A stretch of DNA of 64,000 nt from NCBI RefSeq assembly GCF_000497445.1, contig NZ_CM002285.1:2270764-2334763 (forward strand), in the 5' to 3' direction. The position numbers and the translations under genes are program-made. The notes below the pieces were generated by a model. It was not told the DNA's origin. It searched no databases and saw nothing but the letters and a program-made list of their open reading frames with translations. Source of the stretch: Streptomyces roseochromogenus subsp. oscitans DS 12.976 (GTDB lineage: Bacteria > Actinomycetota > Actinomycetes > Streptomycetales > Streptomycetaceae). Positions 37,746 through 47,511 of this stretch are shown in pieces; position 1 is the first letter of the stretch, and every line of letters starts with the position of its first letter.

Positions 37746-40205
37746 ATGGCCCGCCGCAGCACGAAGACCCCGCCGCCCGACGATTCGTACGAGGAGAAGA
37801 TCCTTGACATCGACGTCGTGGACGAGATGCGTGGCTCCTACCTCGAGTACGCGTACTCGGTCATCTACTCACGCGCCCTGCCGGACGCCCGCGACGGTCT
37901 CAAGCCGGTGCACCGCCGGATCGTGTACCAGATGAACGAGATGGGCGTGCGCCCCGACCGCGCCTATGTGAAGTGCGCGCGCGTCGTCGGCGAGGTCATG
38001 GGCAAGCTGCACCCGCACGGCGACGCGTCGATCTACGACGCCCTGGTGCGCATGGCCCAGCCCTTCTCCATGCGCGTGCCGCTGGTCGACGGCCACGGCA
38101 ACTTCGGCTCGCTGGGCAACGACGACCCGCCGGCCGCCATGCGGTACACCGAGTGCCGGATGGCCGATGCCACGAGCCTGATGACCGAGTCGATCGACGA
38201 GGACACGGTCGACTTCGCGCCGAACTACGACGGCCAGGAGCGGGAACCGGCGGCACTCCCCGCCGCCTTCCCAAACCTGCTGGTGAACGGCTCCTCGGGC
38301 ATCGCGGTCGGCATGGCGACGAACATGCCGCCGCACAACCTCGGAGAGGTGATCGCGGCCGCCCGCCATCTGATCCGGCACCCGAACGCGGACCTGGACG
38401 CGCTGATGAAGCACGTCCCCGGACCGGACCTGCCCACCGGCGGCCGGATCGTCGGCCTGGACGGCATCCGTGACGCGTACGCGACGGGCCGCGGCACCTT
38501 CAAGATGCGTGCGACGGTGTCGGTGGAGACCGTGACCGCCCGCCGCAAGGGACTGGTCGTCACCGAACTGCCCTTCACGGTGGGCCCCGAGAAGGTCATC
38601 GCGAAGATCAAGGACATGGTCAACGCGAAGAAGATCCAGGGCATCGCCGACGTCAAGGACCTCACCGACCGCGAGCACGGCCTGCGTCTGGTCATCGAGG
38701 TCAAGAACGGCTTCGTGCCGGAGGCGATCCTGGAGCAGCTGTACAAGCTGACCCCCATGGAGGAGACCTTCGGCATCAACAACGTGGCGCTGGTGGACGG
38801 CCAGCCGCTCACACTGGGCCTGAAGGAGCTGCTGGAGGTCTACCTCGACCACCGCTTCGACGTCGTCCGGCGCCGCAGCGAGTTCCGCCGCGGCAAGCGC
38901 CGCGACCGGCTGCACCTGGTCGAGGGCCTGCTCACCGCGCTGGTCGACATCGACGAGGTCATCCGGCTGATCCGGTCCAGCGAGAACTCCGCGCAGGCCA
39001 AGGAGCGCCTGATGGAGCGCTTCTCGCTGAGCGACGTGCAGACGCAGTACATCCTCGACACGCCGCTGCGTCGGCTCACCAAGTACGACCGCATCGAGCT
39101 GGAGGCGGAGAAGGACAAGCTCACCGCGGAGATCGCGGAGCTGACCCGGATCCTGGAGTCCGACGCGGAGCTGCGCAAGCTGGTCTCGGCCGAACTGGCC
39201 GCCGTGGCCAAGAAGTTCGGCACCGACCGGCGTACGGTCCTGCTGGAGTCCGGGGGCGCGCCGGTGGCCGCCGTGCCGCTGCAGGTCGCCGACGACCCGT
39301 GCCGGGTGCTGCTGTCCTCGACGGGTCTGCTGGCCCGTACGGCGACCGACGAGCCGTTCCCGGAGCAGGCGGGCGCCAGGCGCGTCAAGCACGACGTGAT
39401 CGTCTCGGCGGTCCCGGCGACCGCGCGCGGCGAGATCGGCGCGGTGACCTCGGCGGGCCGCCTGCTGCGGATCAACGTGGTCGACCTGCCCCAGCTGCCG
39501 GAGGCCACGGCGGCACCGAACCTCTCGGGAGGCGCGCCGCTGGCCGAGTTCGTCTCCCTGGAGGACGACGAGACGGTGGTCTGTCTGATCACGCTGGACG
39601 AGTCGTCCCCGGGTCTCGCGCTCGGCACCGAGCAGGGTGTCGTCAAGCGCGTGGTGCCCGACTACCCGTCCAGCAAGGACGAGTTGGAGGTCATCACCCT
39701 CAAAGAGGGCGACCGGATCGTCGGCGCGGTGGAGCTGCGCACCGGCGACGAGGACCTGGTCTTCATCACCGACGACGCACAGCTGCTGCGGTTCCAGGCG
39801 TCCATCGTGCGTCCGCAGGGCCGCCCGGCGGGCGGTATGGCGGGCATCAAGCTCGGCGAGGGCGCGAAGGTCATCTCCTTCACGGCCATCGACCCGGCGG
39901 CCGACGCGGTGGTGTTCACGGTGGCGGGCTCGCGCGGCACGCTGGACGACTCGGTGCAGACGACGGCCAAGCTGACCCCGTTCGACCAGTATCCGCGCAA
40001 GGGCCGGGCCACCGGTGGTGTGCGCTGCCAGCGGTTCCTGAAGGGCGAGGACTGCCTGGCGCTGGCCTGGGCGGGCCCGGTGCCGGCGCGCGCGGCACAG
40101 AAGAACGGCGCCCCGGCGGACCTGCCGGAGCTGGACCCGCGCCGGGACGGTTCGGGCACCTCGCTGCCGAAGACGGTGTCGGTGGTCGCGGGGCCGGTGT
40201 TCTAG
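37746..40205 (+). CDS. parC: DNA topoisomerase IV subunit A
   Basis: 819 residues, a type IIA topoisomerase breakage-reunion subunit. Catalytic Y134 lies in [10 protein letters not shown]; the quinolone-determining region reads [17 protein letters not shown]; the C-terminal beta-pinwheel blades are visible as repeated GRLLRIN / QGVVKRV / DAQLLRFQ motifs. With ParE it separates sister chromosomes. I call it ParC rather than GyrA because gyrA normally sits beside gyrB near oriC and the start and end resemble SCO5836-type proteins. The frame is open 24 codons upstream, but the AAGGAG ribosome site supports the given ATG. Stops interlock with cobW. Confidence 0.93.
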
Positions 40206-41314
40206 ACGGGCGGAACTTCCAGACTCTGAGCTGGGGGATCTTCCAGGCTCTGGGCGGGCGGATCTTCCAGGTCCGCACCGTCCGGGCCCTGTACGTAGCG
40301 CAGGACGCCCCACATGCCGTGCTCGTCGGCGTGCGGGGCGTGGTTCTTGCACGCCTCCAGTTCCTTGCCGAGGGCGCCCGCGTCAATGCCGGAACCGATC
40401 AGGACGAGCTGGGTCAGGCGGGCGTCGGCGGGCGGCCAGGGCTCGGGGTAGAAGCGCAGGAACCGGCCGACGGCGTGGACGGCGTACCGGTTGACGGTGT
40501 CGTGGGGCCCGAAGTCGACGTATCCCTTGATCCGGTACAGCCCCTCCGGACGGCTGTCGAGGAACTGCATCAGCCTGCGGGGTTCCATCGGCAGGTCGGC
40601 GCCGAAGGACAGGCTGTCGTAGCCGGTGTGCAGATGACCGGCATGGTCGTGGCCGTCGTCGCCGTGCTCGTGCAGGTCGTCGAAGGACAGCTGCCCGATC
40701 CGCTCCTCGCTCGGCCGGCAGTCGAAGAGGAACTCCGGGTCGATACGGCCGTAGGTGGCGGGGACGACGGCGGCACGGTCCGCCAGGGACCGCACCAGAC
40801 CGAACACCCGGTCGCCGTCCGTGGCCCGGTCGAGTTTGTTGACCACCACCAGGTCGGCGAGGGCGAGATGGCGGTCGATCTCGGGGTGCCGGGCTCGGGT
40901 GTCGTCGAACTCGGCGGCGTCCACGACCTCGACGAGGCCGCCGTAGACGACCCTCGGGTGCTCGCTGGCCAGCAGCATCCGCACGAGTTCCTGGGGTTCG
41001 GCGAGCCCGCTGGCCTCGATGACGATCACGTCGATGCCGGTGTCCGGGTCGGCGAGCCGGTCCAGGTAGAGGTCGAGTTCGCTCGCGTCGACGGCACAGC
41101 AGAGGCAGCCGTTGCCGAGCGAGACCGTCGAGTCGCCGAGGGCGCCCGCGACGGCCATGGCGTCGATCTCGATGGCGCCGAAGTCGTTGACGATCGCCCC
41201 GATACGGCTGCCTCCGCTGCGGTGCAGGAGGTGGTTGAGGAGCGTGGTCTTCCCGGAGCCCAGAAATCCGGCGAGTACGACGACCGGGATCTGCGGGCCG
41301 TTGCTGTTCCCCAA
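40202..41314 (-). CDS. CobW/G3E-family GTP-dependent metallochaperone-like protein
   Basis: About 370 residues. P-loop GFLGSGKTT (16-24), the metal-binding CLCC motif (70-73), NKLD (159-162), a His-rich loop HEHGDDGHDHAGHLH (215-229) and a CobW C-terminal domain. G3E proteins insert or traffic Zn, Co or Ni. I chose a TTG start that follows GAGAGAGG by 6-8 bp; the frame upstream would encode only repeat-derived Gly-Pro-Pro. The C-terminus carries two copies of EDPPAQSL from a 24-bp repeat. No Zur box was seen upstream. Confidence 0.85.
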   Translation of the reverse strand: MGNSNGPQIPVVVLAGFLGSGKTTLLNHLLHRSGGSRIGAIVNDFGAIEIDAMAVAGALGDSTVSLGNGCLCCAVDASELDLYLDRLADPDTGIDVIVIEASGLAEPQELVRMLLASEHPRVVYGGLVEVVDAAEFDDTRARHPEIDRHLALADLVVVNKLDRATDGDRVFGLVRSLADRAAVVPATYGRIDPEFLFDCRPSEERIGQLSFDDLHEHGDDGHDHAGHLHTGYDSLSFGADLPMEPRRLMQFLDSRPEGLYRIKGYVDFGPHDTVNRYAVHAVGRFLRFYPEPWPPADARLTQLVLIGSGIDAGALGKELEACKNHAPHADEHGMWGVLRYVQGPDGADLEDPPAQSLEDPPAQSLEVPPV

Positions 41315-41331
41315 CGGGTGACCTCTCTCAT

Positions 41332-41495: not shown

Positions 41496-42662
41496 TCACA
41501 GCGCGGCCGGTACCGGGACCGGCGGCTGGGGTCCCACATATCGCGCCACCGGCCGGATGATCTTTGAATCGGCCGCCTGTTCCAGGATGTTGGCGCTCCA
41601 GCCCACCACCCGTGCGGCGGCGAAGGTGGGAGTGAACATCTCGCGGGGCAGACCGCAGAGTTCCATGACCACGCCGGCGTAGAACTCGACGTTGATGTGG
41701 AGTTCACGGCCGGGCTTCAGCTCGGCGAGGATCACCTCGACCCGGCGCTCCACCTCCACCGCCAAGTCCACACGCGGACCGCCGAAGCCGAGGGCGATCT
41801 CCCGCAGCATCCGCGAACGGGGGTCCTCCGTACGGTAGATGGCGTGTCCGAAGCCCATGATCCGCTCACCGGCGAGCACGCGCTCCCGGATCCAGGGGTC
41901 GATCCGGTCCGGCGTGCCGATGGCGTCCAGGGTGTCCAGGGCCCGGCTGGGCGCGCCTCCGTGCAGCGGCCCCGACAGGGCGCCCACGGCTCCGGTCAGA
42001 CAGGCCGCCACGTCGGCGCCGGTGGAGGCGATGACGCGGGCGGTGAAGGTTGATGCATTGAATCCATGATCAATGGTTGAGATCAGGTATTGCTCGACCG
42101 CACGGGCCCGCCGCGGATCGGGCTCCTCCCCGTTGAGCATGTACAAGTAGTTGGCCGCGTACGGCAGATCCTCGCGCGGCTCGACCGGGTCGAGGCCCTG
42201 ACCGAGCCGGTACAGCGCGGTGAGCAGCGTGGGCACGGCCGCACAGACGGCCACGGTGTCGGCGCACCGCCGGTCCGCGTCGATGTCGTACACCGGTCGC
42301 AGCCGCCGCGCCGACCCCAGCAGCGACAGCGCCGTACGCAGCCCGGACAGCGGGCCGGAGACGCGGCTCGCCGCGGCGATCGCGGGCAGCGCCGCACGGA
42401 CCTCCTCGGGCAGCCGCCGCAACGCCGCGATCTCCGCCAGGAAGGCGGCGCGGCGCTCCGCGTCCGGGAGCGTGCCGTGGACCAGGAGATGCCAGACGTC
42501 CTCGAACCCGCGGGTCCGCGCGAGTTCGACGGCCGAGTACTGGCGGTAGTGGTAGAAGCCCTCCCTCCCCCGGACGTCACCGATCTCGGTCTCGGTGACG
42601 ACGACGCCGGCAAGTCCGCGCGGTGCGTCGATGAGCGGGGTTGCGGTCCTGTTGATGGCCAT
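41496..42662 (-). CDS. Citrate synthase (CitA/methylcitrate-synthase type)
   Basis: 388 residues, condensing oxaloacetate with acetyl-CoA or propionyl-CoA. Active-site histidines H234 (GPLHGGA) and H273 (MGFGHAIY) are present. The third catalytic position, normally Asp in NVDFYSG, is Glu here (E326 in NVEFYAG). The ATG follows GGGAGGAG. It lies head to head with the HTH-bearing paralogue, with operators between them. A shorter N-terminus than hexameric GltA suggests a dimeric type. Confidence 0.9.
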   Translation of the reverse strand: MAINRTATPLIDAPRGLAGVVVTETEIGDVRGREGFYHYRQYSAVELARTRGFEDVWHLLVHGTLPDAERRAAFLAEIAALRRLPEEVRAALPAIAAASRVSGPLSGLRTALSLLGSARRLRPVYDIDADRRCADTVAVCAAVPTLLTALYRLGQGLDPVEPREDLPYAANYLYMLNGEEPDPRRARAVEQYLISTIDHGFNASTFTARVIASTGADVAACLTGAVGALSGPLHGGAPSRALDTLDAIGTPDRIDPWIRERVLAGERIMGFGHAIYRTEDPRSRMLREIALGFGGPRVDLAVEVERRVEVILAELKPGRELHINVEFYAGVVMELCGLPREMFTPTFAAARVVGWSANILEQAADSKIIRPVARYVGPQPPVPVPAAL

Positions 42663-42697
42663 GGTTCTCCTCCCTGTACTTGATCTGACTGTCCATG

Positions 42698-42735
42698 ATT
42701 GACTAAATTCCTGTCAATATTGATTTAATCAATAT
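42698..42735. promoter_or_regulatory. AT-rich operator region between the two citrate-synthase genes
   Basis: ATATTGATTTAATCAATAT (42717-42735) is a perfect 9-1-9 palindrome in very GC-rich DNA. Touching its left side, ATTGAC-N9-GTCAAT (42698-42718) is a second inverted repeat with related half-sites. Both lie in the 102-bp divergent promoter gap and are good candidate sites for the MerR-type domain encoded next door. Confidence 0.75.
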
Positions 42736-42764
42736 GCCGATCAACCTATACGAGGGCGGCTACG

Positions 42765-44033
42765 GTGATCCCCATGCGTGATGACGAACCCGTTCCCGGC
42801 CGTCCCGGGCGAAGGCTGACCACCAACGAGACCGCCGAACTGCTCGGCGTGAAGCCGGAGACGGTGTACGCATATGTGAGCCGCGGCCTGCTCAGCAGCA
42901 GACGCGAACCCGGCGGCCGCGCCAGCTCCTTCGAGGCGAAGGAGGTCGAGGCCCTCGCCCGGCGCCACCGGCGCGAGGCGGCCGGAAGCCCCGGCTCCGG
43001 CGGGGACCTGTCCGTGCGGACCCGCATCACGCTGATCGAGCAGGACCGGTACTACTTCCGGGGCGTGGACGCCGTCGAGCTGGCTCTCCGGCACTCCTAC
43101 GAGGAGGTCGCGGAGTGGCTGTGGACGGCCCGGCTGACCCCGGGCGTCACCTTCGCCGCGCCCGGCCCCACCGTCGAGGTCGCCCGCCGCGCGGTGAACG
43201 CCCTGTCCGAGCACGCCTCCCCCACCGACCGGCTGCGCGTGGCGGCGGTCGCCGCGGCGGCCGAGGACCCGCTGCGCTTCGACCTGTCGGAGGACGCCGT
43301 GCTGAACACCGCGCGGATCCTCATCCCCACACTCGTCGCCGCGCTGCCGCCGGCCCGGCATGCCCACAAGGACGACGGGCCGCTCGCCCACCGGCTCTGG
43401 GGCCGGCTGACCGGCCGACCCGCCGACGAGGCGTCCCTGCGCGTCCTGGACACCGCGCTCGCCCTGCTCGCCGACCACGACCTGGCCGCCTCCACTCTCG
43501 CGGTCCGCGTCGCCGCCTCGGCCCGCGCACACGCCTACGCGGCCGTCTCGGCCGGGCTCGGCGTCCTGGAGGGCCCGCTGCACGGCGCCGCGAGCGGGAT
43601 GGCCCACCGCATGCTGCTCGACGTGCTCGACCAGGGCACCGCGGTCCCGGTGATCGCCGACGAGCTGCGCGCGGGCCGCCGCGTCCCCGGGCTCGGCCAC
43701 CGGCTGTACGCCGGCGAGGATCCCCGCGCGAGCGTGCTGTTCGGCCTGCTGGAGCACGTCCCGCGCGCGGAGTCGGCCCTGCTGGCCGCCCGGGACATCG
43801 TCGCCACGACCGCCCGGCACACCCCCCTGCACGCCAATGTCGACCTGGCCCTGGCGGTGTTCACCGCGTCCAGCGGCATGCCCGCAACGGCCGGTGAGAC
43901 GATCTTCGCCGTAGCCCGGACGGCGGGCTGGATCGCGCACGCTCTGGAGGAGTACGGCGAGCGCCCCCTGCGCATGCGCCCCGTCGGCCACTACGTCGGC
44001 GTACGGCCCCCGCAGCCGCTCCCGGCGACTTGA
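42765..44033 (+). CDS. Citrate synthase-like protein with N-terminal MerR-type DNA-binding domain
   Basis: 422 residues. Residues about 18-66 form a helix-turn-helix of the MerR/excisionase kind: TTNETAELLGVKPETVYAYVSRGLLSS, then GGRASSFEAKEVEALARR. The remaining 340 residues are a complete citrate-synthase fold keeping all three catalytic positions: H273 (GPLHGAASG), H312 (GLGHRLY) and D360 (NVDLA). It could be an enzyme, a metabolite-sensing regulator, or both. The GTG start has GAGGG 8 bp upstream; an ATG three codons on is also possible. Divergent from a citrate synthase gene, it probably controls it. Confidence 0.88.
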   Translation: MIPMRDDEPVPGRPGRRLTTNETAELLGVKPETVYAYVSRGLLSSRREPGGRASSFEAKEVEALARRHRREAAGSPGSGGDLSVRTRITLIEQDRYYFRGVDAVELALRHSYEEVAEWLWTARLTPGVTFAAPGPTVEVARRAVNALSEHASPTDRLRVAAVAAAAEDPLRFDLSEDAVLNTARILIPTLVAALPPARHAHKDDGPLAHRLWGRLTGRPADEASLRVLDTALALLADHDLAASTLAVRVAASARAHAYAAVSAGLGVLEGPLHGAASGMAHRMLLDVLDQGTAVPVIADELRAGRRVPGLGHRLYAGEDPRASVLFGLLEHVPRAESALLAARDIVATTARHTPLHANVDLALAVFTASSGMPATAGETIFAVARTAGWIAHALEEYGERPLRMRPVGHYVGVRPPQPLPAT

Positions 44034-45051: not shown

Positions 45052-45154
45052 GCGGCCGCCTCCCCAAGGACGGCCGCCATCTTCAAGAAATGGTCAAGAG
45101 ATCCGCACCACACCCTCTGGGGCGCTTCGGGCCTTCCCACATACGGTCGTGCGT

Positions 45155-46834
45155 ATGAGCCCCACTCCTCCCGCGCGCCGGTTGCGCCTCGGACTGCCCC
45201 GGCGGGTGTTCTCGCAGGTGCTGCTGATGCAGGTGGCGATCGCCGCGGGGGTCGCGGTGCTCGCGACCGGGCTGTTCCTCGCGCCGCTGAGCAAACAGCT
45301 GGACCAGGAGGCGATGCGCAGGGCGCTGGCGATCGCGGAGACCACGGCCCAGGACCCGCAGATCACCGAGGGCGTCCTGACCACCCCGCCGACCGCGGAC
45401 GGCCCGGTGCAGAAGGAGGCCGAGCGGATCCGGAAGGCCACGCACGCCGAGTACATCGTGGTGCTGGACCGGAGGGGCGTGCGCTGGTCACACACCACGC
45501 CCTCGCAGATCGGTCAGGTCGTCTCCACCAGCCCTGAGGTCGCCCTCGCCGGCAACGAGGTCATGGAGATCGACAACGGCACCCTGGGCCGCTCCGCCCG
45601 CGGCAAGGTGCCGTTGTACGACGCCCGCCACCGCGTCATCGGGGCGGTCTCGGTCGGCATCGCCTACGACAGCGTGCGGGCGCGGCTGATCAGCGCGATC
45701 CCGGGCTTGTTCGCGTACGCCGGCGGCGCGCTCGCTGTGGGCGCGCTGGCCGCCTGGCTGATCTCCCGCCGGGTCCAGCGGCAAACCCGGGACCTGGCCT
45801 TCTCCGACATCTCGGCGCTGCTCGCGGAGCGCGAGGCGATGCTCCACGGCATCCGGGAGGGCGTGGTCGCGCTCGACCGGGGCGGCCGCGTCCGCCTGCT
45901 CAACGACGAGGCGCGACGGCTGCTGGGTATCGGTGACGAGGCCGTCGGTCAGACCCCGGACGAGGCGCTCGGCGCGGGCCGTACGACGGACGTGCTGGCC
46001 GGCCGGGTGACCGGCACCGATCTGCTCACCGTGCGCGGCCAGCGCGTACTGCTCGCCAACCGCATGCCCACCGGCGACGGCGGCGCCGTGGCCACTCTGC
46101 GCGACCGCACCGAACTGGAGCGGCTGGGGCGCGAACTCGACTCCACGCGCGGGCTGATCGACGCCCTGCGCGCCCAGGACCACGAGCACGCCAACCGCAT
46201 GCACACCCTGCTCGGACTGCTGGAACTGGACATGTACGACGACGCAGTGGAGTTCGTCGGCGAGGTGGTCGGCGACCATCGGGTCACCGCCGAGCAGGTG
46301 ACCGAGAAGATCCGGGATCCACTGCTGGCCGCGCTGCTGGTCGGCAAGGCGACCGTCGCGGCCGAGCGCGGGGTCGCGCTGTGGGTGTCGGAGCGCACCC
46401 GGCTGCCGGACCGGCTGATCGATCCGCGGGGTCTGGTCACGGTGGTGGGCAACCTGGTGGACAACGCCCTCGACGCGGTCGCTGGCGCGCTCCACGCACG
46501 CGTGGAGGTCGAGTTGCGCACCGAGCGCCGTACGGTCGTACTCGGAGTGCGCGACACGGGCCCCGGAATCCCGGCAGAGCAAAGAGAGTTGATCTTCACC
46601 GAGGGGTGGTCCACCAAGCGGCCGCCCGCGCACGGCAAACGCGGCATCGGGCTCTCTCTGGTGCGCCGGCTCGCCGAACGGCAGGGCGGGAGCGCGACGG
46701 TGGGCACGGCCGATGGCGGTGGCGCCGAGTTCACCGTGGTCCTGCCGGAGGCACTGACCGAGCCGGAGCTGGACCCCGTGGTGACCGAGGAGTCCCGCCA
46801 ACCCGCCGCCGTCGCCGAGGAGGAGGCGCGATGA
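45155..46834 (+). CDS. CitA/DcuS-type sensor histidine kinase
   Basis: About 559 residues: two transmembrane helices (about 23-45 and 184-207) enclosing an extracytoplasmic PAS-like sensor domain, a cytoplasmic PAS domain (about 230-320), and a kinase core of the CitA family with QDHEHANRMHTLLGL (phospho-acceptor His near 345), VGNLVDNALDAV, GPGIP and GIGLSLVRRL. Such sensors detect di- or tricarboxylates. TACGGT lies 7 bp before the ATG, so the mRNA may be leaderless; a GTG two codons upstream is an alternative. The stop overlaps the regulator start (ATGA). Confidence 0.88.
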   Translation: MSPTPPARRLRLGLPRRVFSQVLLMQVAIAAGVAVLATGLFLAPLSKQLDQEAMRRALAIAETTAQDPQITEGVLTTPPTADGPVQKEAERIRKATHAEYIVVLDRRGVRWSHTTPSQIGQVVSTSPEVALAGNEVMEIDNGTLGRSARGKVPLYDARHRVIGAVSVGIAYDSVRARLISAIPGLFAYAGGALAVGALAAWLISRRVQRQTRDLAFSDISALLAEREAMLHGIREGVVALDRGGRVRLLNDEARRLLGIGDEAVGQTPDEALGAGRTTDVLAGRVTGTDLLTVRGQRVLLANRMPTGDGGAVATLRDRTELERLGRELDSTRGLIDALRAQDHEHANRMHTLLGLLELDMYDDAVEFVGEVVGDHRVTAEQVTEKIRDPLLAALLVGKATVAAERGVALWVSERTRLPDRLIDPRGLVTVVGNLVDNALDAVAGALHARVEVELRTERRTVVLGVRDTGPGIPAEQRELIFTEGWSTKRPPAHGKRGIGLSLVRRLAERQGGSATVGTADGGGAEFTVVLPEALTEPELDPVVTEESRQPAAVAEEEAR

Positions 46835-47511
46835 TCGAGGTCCTGGTCGTGGACGACGACACCCGCGTCGCCCAGGTGAATGCCGCGTACGTGGAGAAGG
46901 TGCCGGGATTCCACGTCGCCGCCGAGGCGCACAGCGCGGCGGAGGCGCTGCGCCTGGTGGAGGCGCTGCCGCGACTGGACCTGGTGCTCATGGACCACTA
47001 TCTGCCCGACGACACCGGTCTCGCGGTGGTCCAGGAGATGCGCAGGCGCGGCCACCAGACCGACGTGATCATGGTGACGGCGGCACGGGACGTCTCGACG
47101 GTCCAGGCCGCGCTGCGGCAGGGGGCGCTGCAGTATCTCGTGAAACCGTTCGCCTTCGCCGGTCTGCGCGCCAAGCTGGAGGCGTACGCCGAGCTGCGGC
47201 GCACCCTGGACGGCGGCGGAGAGGCCGAACAGGCGCAGGTGGACCGCATCTTCGGCGCCCTCTCCGCGCCGTCGGAGCCCGGGTTGCCCAAGGGGCACTC
47301 CCCCACGACGGCCGAGCTGGTGCGCCAGGCGCTGCTGAACGCCGAAGGGCCGCTGTCCGCCCAGGAGATCGCCGAGCGGACGGGGGTGAGCCGGCAGACG
47401 GCCCAGCGGTATCTGAAACTCCTGGAGCGCACCGGACGGGCGCGGCTGACCCTCAAGTACGGCGACGCGGGCCGCCCGGAACACCGTTACGTGTGGGCGG
47501 CCCGCGGCTGA
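46831..47511 (+). CDS. CitB/DcuR-type response regulator
   Basis: 226 residues. The receiver has D8-D10 and phospho-acceptor D55 (LVLMDHYLPDD) and K in LVKPFAF. The C-terminal domain has an HTH, SAQEIAERTGVSRQTAQRYLKLLERTGRARL. It is cotranscribed with the kinase and faces the ABC importer genes, which are likely targets. A close paralogue lies on the other side of that importer. Confidence 0.92.
   Translation: MIEVLVVDDDTRVAQVNAAYVEKVPGFHVAAEAHSAAEALRLVEALPRLDLVLMDHYLPDDTGLAVVQEMRRRGHQTDVIMVTAARDVSTVQAALRQGALQYLVKPFAFAGLRAKLEAYAELRRTLDGGGEAEQAQVDRIFGALSAPSEPGLPKGHSPTTAELVRQALLNAEGPLSAQEIAERTGVSRQTAQRYLKLLERTGRARLTLKYGDAGRPEHRYVWAARG

What the first reader, a model, noticed from the sequence alone, without database searches (positions are those of the whole stretch)
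42698..44033. Citrate-synthase fold fused to a DNA-binding domain, facing a citrate synthase across a perfect 19-bp palindrome
Seen: MerR-type HTH (about residues 18-66) ahead of a complete citrate-synthase domain; ATATTGATTTAATCAATAT plus a neighbouring ATTGAC-N9-GTCAAT in the 102-bp divergent gap. Known: citrate synthases bind oxaloacetate and acyl-CoA; MerR-type domains bind short AT-rich palindromes as dimers, and citrate synthases are dimers. Inferred: the protein is an enzyme-derived metabolite sensor that controls the adjacent citrate synthase and itself, a direct feedback link between TCA or methylcitrate flux and transcription.
Basis: partly seen in the sequence, partly recalled or inferred. 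Interest (0 to 1): 0.8.

Follow-up and report, generated by a model that had tools for sequence, protein, structure and literature searches.

The report
Citrate-synthase-based DNA-binding regulator family
A gene filed as a citrate synthase is most likely a DNA-binding regulator built from a citrate-synthase sensor, with a conserved DNA site next to the genes it appears to control; binding and its ligand have not been tested at the bench.

Summary
The window (a Streptomyces genome) encodes a 419-residue protein with a helix-turn-helix (HTH) ahead of a complete citrate-synthase (CS) domain, divergent from a stand-alone CS (citA4) across a gap holding the 19-bp palindrome. Comparison shows one case of a wide HTH-CS family (Actinomycetota, Alpha-, Beta- and Gammaproteobacteria, Deinococcus) that forms one clade, with a near-invariant recognition helix. 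The palindrome is part of a three-half-site operator, GTCAAYNTTGAT-N-ATCAA. It lies upstream of 75 of 80 Streptomyces HTH-CS genes, and at the promoter of the HTH-CS gene or operon in 21 of 22 chosen plasmid loci, whatever the neighbour: CS, CoA transferase, homocitrate-synthase-like enzyme, or 2-hydroxyacid dehydrogenase with transporter. Shuffled upstreams gave no exact site. The window's genome has one other place with exact sites, before a CoA transferase whose homologues sit beside HTH-CS in proteobacteria. The papers I found treat the Streptomyces orthologue (SCO5831/citA3) as an enzyme. Most likely mechanism: an autoregulating one-component regulator, probably a repressor, whose CS domain reads a 2-oxoacid, acyl-CoA or citrate-like ligand. 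DNA binding is strongly inferred; ligand and sign are not shown. New variant of a known kind.

The parts
42774..44033 (+). HTH-CS regulator gene (orthologue of S. coelicolor SCO5831/citA3 by gene order); stop codon included
   Evidence: ORF, Pfam, conserved ATG after TACGGTG box
42816..42968 (+). HTH_17 DNA-binding domain with recognition helix TVYAYVSRG
   Evidence: Pfam 32.2 bits vs cut-off 27; T[VLI]YAY[VA]SRG in 64 of 68 aligned HTH-CS proteins
43011..43979 (+). Citrate-synthase domain, proposed ligand sensor; catalytic His, His, Asp and the oxaloacetate-binding Arg/His positions all present (residue roles recalled)
   Evidence: Pfam 9.1e-61; alignment
41496..42662 (-). Divergent stand-alone citrate synthase (citA4), proposed target
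   Evidence: Pfam 2.6e-110; of 121 Streptomyces genomes 73 have both genes, 4 HTH-CS only, 2 citA4 only, 42 neither
42713..42733 (+). Proposed operator GTCAA-TA-TTGA-N5-TCAA-T (three half-sites)
   Evidence: Exact form upstream in 75/80 Streptomyces, 33/48 class-level and 16/22 plasmid loci; shuffled 0/800, 0/480, 0/220
42717..42735 (.).
42698..42718 (.). ATTGAC-N9-GTCAAT inverted repeat overlapping the operator's left half-site; a TTGACA-like -35 for citA4 on the minus strand lies at the operator's left edge
   Evidence: related TTGAY-N7..9-[GT]TCAAYnTTGA in 71 of 80 loci; the -35 reading is inference
42680..42695 (.). Counterpart of the S. coelicolor MtrA-bound site (TTGACTTAACTGTCCA)
   Evidence: PMC12323332 section 10; similar element in 66 of 80 loci
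42761..42766 (+). Conserved TACGGT, likely -10 of a leaderless HTH-CS transcript
   Evidence: TACGGTG..ATG in 71 of 80 loci; promoter role inferred

Best explanation
The protein is a one-component transcription regulator. The N-terminal HTH binds GTCAAYNTTGAT-N-ATCAA in the shared gap, probably as the dimer given by the CS fold. There it controls its own gene and the divergent citA4, and in the window's genome probably also a family III CoA-transferase gene elsewhere. The CS domain keeps the oxaloacetate- and acyl-CoA-type active site as a sensor for a 2-oxoacid, acyl-CoA or citrate-like product, and ligand binding changes the hold of the HTH on DNA. The operator overlaps the likely -35 region of citA4 and ends a median 42 bp before the HTH-CS start, so repression relieved by ligand is the more likely sign. 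Shown by comparison: the domain fusion, the single HTH-CS clade, the operator and its co-conservation. Inferred: DNA binding itself, dimer geometry, sign, ligand.
For: Exact operator upstream of HTH-CS: 75/80, 33/48, 16/22 loci against 0/800, 0/480, 0/220 shuffles (one mismatch allowed: 79/80, 34/48, 16/22 against 2/800, 0/480, 1/220) and 2, 0 and 5 exact sites in the rest of the same loci. The 5 in the plasmid group are all at the promoter of the HTH-CS operon in 5 Burkholderiaceae loci, and the 2 in the Streptomyces group lie in L055 (before the displaced citA4) and L074. The site goes with the HTH-CS transcription unit while the neighbour differs. Genome level: exact site in 68/77 Streptomyces genomes with HTH-CS against 4/44 without (Fisher 1e-18, not corrected for relatedness), 66 of the 77 within 400 bp upstream and all 66 in the same orientation. 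Rearrangements: in L055 the site lies 51 bp before a citA4 2.3 kb away; in G326 it precedes citA4 with HTH-CS following in the same direction; in G101 and G307 it stays with HTH-CS unlinked from citA4. One clade for the 68 HTH-CS proteins in the tree, on the CS domain alone (FastTree support 0.94). T[VLI]YAY[VA]SRG in 64 of 68. HTH and operator are kept in three members that lost the second catalytic His (L112, L115, L116). Second own-genome place before a CoA transferase 43% and 46% identical to those beside HTH-CS in Ewingella and Azospirillum.
Against: No binding, knockout or ligand data exist in what I could read. The catalytic triad is intact in 64 of 68 aligned members, so the domain may still be an enzyme. 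13 of 32 non-Streptomyces class loci lack the exact three-half-site form (11 of them, from one genus, keep only TTGATT-N4-TCAA), and L141 has no site at all near its HTH-CS. 11 of 77 Streptomyces genomes with HTH-CS lack an exact site within 400 bp, among them G018, G112 and G398, which have no citA4. One genome without detected HTH-CS (G400, a fragmented draft) still has the site before citA4. The CoA-transferase association rests on few independent events (2-5 pairs; sign test not significant) and is confined to close relatives (1 of 24 and 0 of 22 among more distant copies). The plasmid loci were picked by me from the hit lists and include near-copies. The structure model is only moderate (pLDDT 73.9) and says little on domain arrangement.
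Confidence: 0.77

Rival explanations
1. Trigger enzyme: the protein is both an active citrate or methylcitrate synthase and a repressor, switching between catalysis and DNA binding with substrate supply.
For: Catalytic His/His/Asp kept in 64 of 68 members and substrate Arg/His positions in 65 or more of 68; proteomics groups SCO5831 with TCA enzymes (PMC8981147, passage).
Against: Members without the second catalytic His (L112, L115, L116) keep HTH and operator, and L141 lost the whole triad while keeping the HTH; the oxaloacetate-type His is Gln in L138, L142, L144. A separate CS sits next door in many genomes.
Confidence: 0.3
2. The conserved site belongs to another regulator (MtrA, GlnR, or a Crp/FNR-type protein, since TTGAT-N4-ATCAA resembles an FNR box as recalled) and the HTH of the CS is vestigial.
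For: MtrA binds the same gap in S. coelicolor and citA3/citA4 rise in the mtrA mutant at late times (PMC12323332, section 10); GlnR acts on citrate synthase genes in Saccharopolyspora erythraea (review PMC10704036, passage). Non-Streptomyces actinobacteria often have the FNR-like spacing (6 between TTGA and TCAA in 11 of 19).
Against: The MtrA-bound sequence TTGACTTAACTGTCCA is a neighbouring element. The operator goes with HTH-CS in Actinomycetota, three classes of proteobacteria and Deinococcus with different neighbours; Streptomyces genomes without HTH-CS rarely have it (4 of 44). The spacer between TTGA and TCAA varies from 5 to 9, unlike a fixed FNR box.
Confidence: 0.06
3. HTH-CS is a CS subunit that pairs with CitA4 as a heteromer; the HTH is a protein-interaction or localisation domain and the palindrome is only a promoter element.
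For: The two genes co-occur strongly in Streptomyces (73 both, 4 HTH-CS only, 2 citA4 only, 42 neither of 121).
Against: 16 of the 20 proteobacterial HTH-CS loci examined have no neighbouring CS; the recognition helix is nearly invariant; the site recurs at other genes.
Confidence: 0.06

Closest known systems
MocR/PdxR regulators (winged HTH of GntR type fused to a fold-type I aminotransferase; recalled, no call)
   Same: A metabolic enzyme fold used as the sensor of a one-component regulator, often divergent from a target of related chemistry.
   Different: Different HTH and different enzyme fold; here citrate synthase, with the catalytic residues mostly kept.
Stand-alone citrate/2-methylcitrate synthases (PF00285, TIGR01800)
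   Same: Whole CS domain with His/His/Asp and substrate Arg/His residues.
   Different: N-terminal HTH, separate clade, far below the NCBIfam cut-offs, own operator.
BldC / MerR-type HTH proteins
   Same: HTH_17-like domain; weak matches to BldC, excisionase and MerR models and to four solved small DNA-binding chains at E 0.02-0.4, one of them RacA.
   Different: Below BldC (26 vs 77 bits) and MerR cut-offs; C-terminal CS instead of a small dimer helix or ligand domain.
SCO5831/citA3 of Streptomyces coelicolor
   Same: The orthologue by gene order (next to SCO5830 sucrase/ferredoxin-like and the SCO5829/5828 two-component system; PMC9739823, passage).
   Different: Described as a citrate synthase or citrate-synthase-like TCA protein; no regulator role proposed in the passages and section read.

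Membership tests
Citrate synthase (PF00285) | Match to the CS domain model | tested here: met
   206.3 bits vs cut-off 27
Citrate synthase (PF00285) | Catalytic His, His, Asp present | tested here: met
   His270, His309, Asp357 in the 419-residue numbering
Citrate synthase (PF00285) | Citrate synthase activity | not testable with these tools
   No assay
Citrate synthase II / 2-methylcitrate synthase (TIGR01800) | Score over curated cut-off | tested here: not met
   159.9 vs 421.3 bits
MerR family regulators | Match to MerR or MerR_1 over cut-off | tested here: not met
   27.3 vs 28.2 and 21.0 vs 21.6 bits
MerR family regulators | Operator palindrome within a long -35/-10 spacer | tested here: inconclusive
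   Operator ends at varying distance from the HTH-CS start (28-88 bp); promoters not mapped
BldC family (NF033787) | Score over curated cut-off | tested here: not met
   26 vs 77 bits
HTH_17 (PF12728) | Score over curated cut-off | tested here: met
   32.2 vs 27 bits
One-component regulators with an enzyme-derived sensor | DNA-binding domain and enzyme-fold domain in one chain, with a conserved site at own and neighbouring genes | tested here: met
One-component regulators with an enzyme-derived sensor | Ligand binding alters DNA binding | not testable with these tools
   Needs purified protein

The most novel reading that the evidence does not exclude
A phylum-spanning family of transcription regulators that still catalyse the Claisen condensation: each protein measures acyl-CoA and 2-oxoacid supply by turning it over, and its catalytic state sets DNA occupancy at operons for organic-acid and acyl-CoA metabolism, including operons whose enzyme (a homocitrate-synthase-like protein) performs similar chemistry with an unrelated fold.
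Probability: 0.25. Interest if true: 0.88.

Novelty: new variant of a known kind. Interest (0 to 1): 0.74.

Why it matters
A gene annotated and used as a TCA-cycle enzyme in Streptomyces omics (SCO5831) would be a regulator, and a class of proteins now named 'citrate synthase family protein' or 'citrate synthase' in soil bacteria would be transcription factors with a predictable DNA site. The site gives direct, cheap tests and a way to assign function to the CoA transferase, 2-hydroxyacid dehydrogenase and transporter operons that carry it. It would also give a genetically encoded sensor for an oxaloacetate-, acyl-CoA- or citrate-like metabolite.

Tried and rejected
Chance palindrome: rejected. 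'MerR protein': not filed, below cut-offs. FNR box: rejected because the spacing varies between clades. Palindrome alone as the operator: replaced by the three-half-site element once other phyla were read. A first regex reading of active-site motifs was unreliable and was replaced by an alignment; three members with open frames over 600 residues (L107, L120, L124) were left out of that alignment and of the tree, and L119 has no HTH in its frame. The first CoA-transferase scan missed 15 of 30 loci through a bad motif and was redone with tblastn. The CoA-transferase correlation was checked on a tree and is not significant with independent pairs. Literature: searches found no paper describing an HTH-CS regulator in the held library, mostly judged from listings; subscription papers are mostly missing, among them Liao et al. 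2014.

Full report
What is there. The window lies at 2,270,764-2,334,763 of contig 1 of a 9.78-Mb Streptomyces genome (79 of the 80 named relatives kept are titled Streptomyces, the other 'Actinobacteria bacterium OV320'). The gene at 42774-44033 encodes an HTH (Pfam HTH_17, residues 18-68 of the longer reading) and a CS domain (83-405). Divergently lies a stand-alone CS, 42662-41496. The genome has four CS-domain matches. Downstream are a sucrase/ferredoxin-like gene and a sensor kinase/response regulator pair, the order reported for SCO5831-SCO5828 of S. coelicolor (PMC9739823, passage); I take SCO5831 as the orthologue on that ground, not by sequence. The conserved start is ATG 42774 after a TACGGTG box (71 of 80 loci), so the transcript is probably leaderless.

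The operator in Streptomyces. In 80 Streptomyces loci (the best 80 of 485 confirmed relatives, from a capped scan), TCAA-N2-TTGA-N3..9-TCAA lies within about 320 bp upstream of HTH-CS in 75 exactly and in 79 with one mismatch. Shuffled upstreams gave 0 of 800 exact and 2 of 800 with one mismatch; the remaining 1.42 Mb (both strands) of those loci gave 2 exact sites, in L055 and L074. The spacer between TTGA and TCAA is 5 in all 75. The site starts a median 52 bp from the citA4 start (IQR 51-53, range 50-101, n = 70) and ends a median 42 bp from the HTH-CS ATG (IQR 39-43.5, range 28-88, n = 75). In the window the left half-site carries a TTGACA-like -35 on the citA4 strand; this is inference.

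The operator in other clades. Among 48 class-level loci with the HTH in frame (49 taken, L119 without it), 33 have the exact site: 14 of 16 Streptomyces and 19 of 32 others. Shuffles gave 0 of 480. Eleven of the 13 others without it belong to one genus (g37) and keep only TTGATT-N4-TCAA in the same place; L135 has a one-mismatch form and L134 none. I also took 22 plasmid loci (L137-L158), chosen by me from the two hit lists (205 and 169 records with any match), with near-copies among them. 16 have the exact site directly upstream; shuffles gave 0 of 220 exact and 1 of 220 with one mismatch. In five Burkholderiaceae loci (L143, L146-L149; two on one plasmid) HTH-CS is the last gene of an SDR-MFS-VOC operon, and the exact site lies instead in the gap between the operon's first gene and a divergent D-glycerate dehydrogenase gene. 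Only L141 (Cupriavidus oxalaticus) has none. That gives 21 of 22. The spacer is 5-8 in the non-Streptomyces class loci and mostly 9 (12 of 16) in the plasmid group.

The neighbours differ. In actinobacterial class loci plus Embleya a stand-alone CS lies divergently in 40 of 50. Elsewhere HTH-CS is divergent from a 2-hydroxyacid dehydrogenase or an MFS transporter followed by one (Caballeronia, Comamonadaceae, Paraburkholderia, Thioclava, two Comamonas), a CoA transferase (Ewingella, Azospirillum), a DUF2332 gene, porin and MFS genes, or a stand-alone CS (Agrobacterium pusense and vitis, two Chelatococcus). In Deinococcus (L140) and three actinobacterial loci (L124, L130, L131) the divergent gene encodes a homocitrate/isopropylmalate-synthase-like protein (best NCBIfam match homocitrate synthase, E 2.5e-27 and 1e-68 to 1e-73, all below the curated cut-offs). 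The common theme, 2-oxoacids and acyl-CoA, is inference.

The site follows the genes. In 121 Streptomyces genomes (same set in four searches, not independent of the 80 loci above) HTH-CS is in 77 and citA4 in 75; both in 73, HTH-CS only in 4 (G391 a fragmented assembly), citA4 only in 2, neither in 42. An exact site exists in 68 of 77 genomes with HTH-CS and 4 of 44 without; 66 of 77 have it 0-400 bp upstream, all in the same orientation. One of the four, G400 (a fragmented draft), has it before citA4. These genomes are related, so the Fisher values (1e-18, 2e-25) overstate independence. In L055 citA4 lies 2.3 kb away and the site lies with it, 51 bp from its start. In G326 citA4 and HTH-CS run in one direction behind the site; in G101 and G307 the genes are unlinked and the site stays with HTH-CS. 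In the seven of 80 loci where no citA4 was found within the 4-kb flank, 4 keep the exact site and 3 keep it with one mismatch. Against this, 11 of 77 genomes with HTH-CS have no exact site within 400 bp; three of them, G018, G112 and G398, have no citA4.

A second target. The only other exact sites in the window's genome form one compound place before a family III CoA-transferase gene. Its readable part (411 residues) is 43% and 46% identical, over 332 and 314 columns, to the CoA transferases beside HTH-CS in Ewingella and Azospirillum. Of 79 Streptomyces genomes with a homologue I read 76 upstreams (three were partial or at a contig edge): a TTGA-N5-TCAA or near TTGAT-N3-ATCAA site is present in 20 of 47 with HTH-CS and 1 of 29 without (Fisher 1.4e-4). 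Among the 30 closest copies, by a stricter count, it is in 19 of 23 against 0 of 7 (1.6e-4); the one HTH-CS-negative genome counted above (G057, among the 7) has TTGACTGAGTCAA. Among the other 46 copies it is in 1 of 24 against 0 of 22. G018, G112 and G398 keep this site. On a tree only 2-5 independent pairs exist; random pairings never went the opposite way, but the sign test is not significant. So this target is likely in close relatives and not proven.

One family. On the CS domain alone the 68 HTH-CS sequences in the tree form one clade (FastTree 0.94; rooted on the window's CitA), apart from 33 divergent partners and 6 other citrate synthases. The helix T[VLI]YAY[VA]SRG is present in 64 of 68. 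Catalytic His/His/Asp is intact in 64 of 68, and in 80 of 80 Streptomyces loci by motif. Three related actinobacterial members have Met, Ile or Ala for the second His, and L141 has lost all three residues; the first three keep HTH and operator. The roles of these residues are recalled from the citrate synthase literature.

What is in print (held library only). S. coelicolor SCO5831 (citA3) and SCO5832 (citA4) are called putative citrate synthases; MtrA binds a probe from their gap by gel shift and both rise in the mtrA mutant at late times (PMC12323332, section 10 read). SCO5831 is more abundant in phosphate proficiency and grouped with TCA enzymes (PMC8981147 and PMC9739823, passages). It is listed under TCA cycle in an RNA-seq table (PMC7324645, passage). 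GlnR acts on citrate synthase genes in Saccharopolyspora erythraea (PMC10704036, passage); the original paper is not held. Ten searches found no HTH-CS regulator described.

Mechanism and verdict. I commit to an autoregulating one-component regulator with a citrate-synthase-fold sensor, more likely a repressor than an activator because the site overlaps the likely citA4 -35 region and sits close to its own promoter. DNA binding by the HTH is strongly inferred from co-conservation; ligand, sign and residual catalysis are open. It works like MocR-type regulators (enzyme fold as sensor; recalled) but is not a member of the MerR or BldC families tested. Novelty: new variant of a known kind.

Noticed in passing
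window 45149-47511: A two-component system with an sCache_3 / SpoOB-type sensor kinase (CitA/DcuS-like, as recalled) lies downstream of HTH-CS and a sucrase/ferredoxin-like gene, and may sense an organic acid outside the cell.
   Followed up: no
L141:3962-5206: Cupriavidus oxalaticus plasmid HTH-CS has lost all three catalytic residues (Ser, Arg, Val) while keeping the HTH, and has no recognisable operator upstream.
   Followed up: partly
L112, L115, L116: A group of actinobacterial HTH-CS proteins has Ala, Ile or Met in place of the second catalytic His but keeps HTH and operator.
   Followed up: partly
L124, L130, L131, L140: HTH-CS is divergent from a homocitrate/isopropylmalate-synthase-like gene, an unrelated fold (recalled) doing similar chemistry.
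   Followed up: partly
L074:2530-2550: A second exact operator about 1.4 kb upstream of HTH-CS in Streptomyces aurantiacus, on the other strand, with no citA4 found nearby; its gene was not identified.
   Followed up: no
L139, L140, L150, L151 upstream of HTH-CS: Two overlapping operators in opposite orientation share the central GTCAAYNTTGAT, giving four half-sites.
   Followed up: no
window 40202-41320: A CobW-type GTPase gene follows citA4 in the window and in most of the 80 loci, at varying distance.
   Followed up: no
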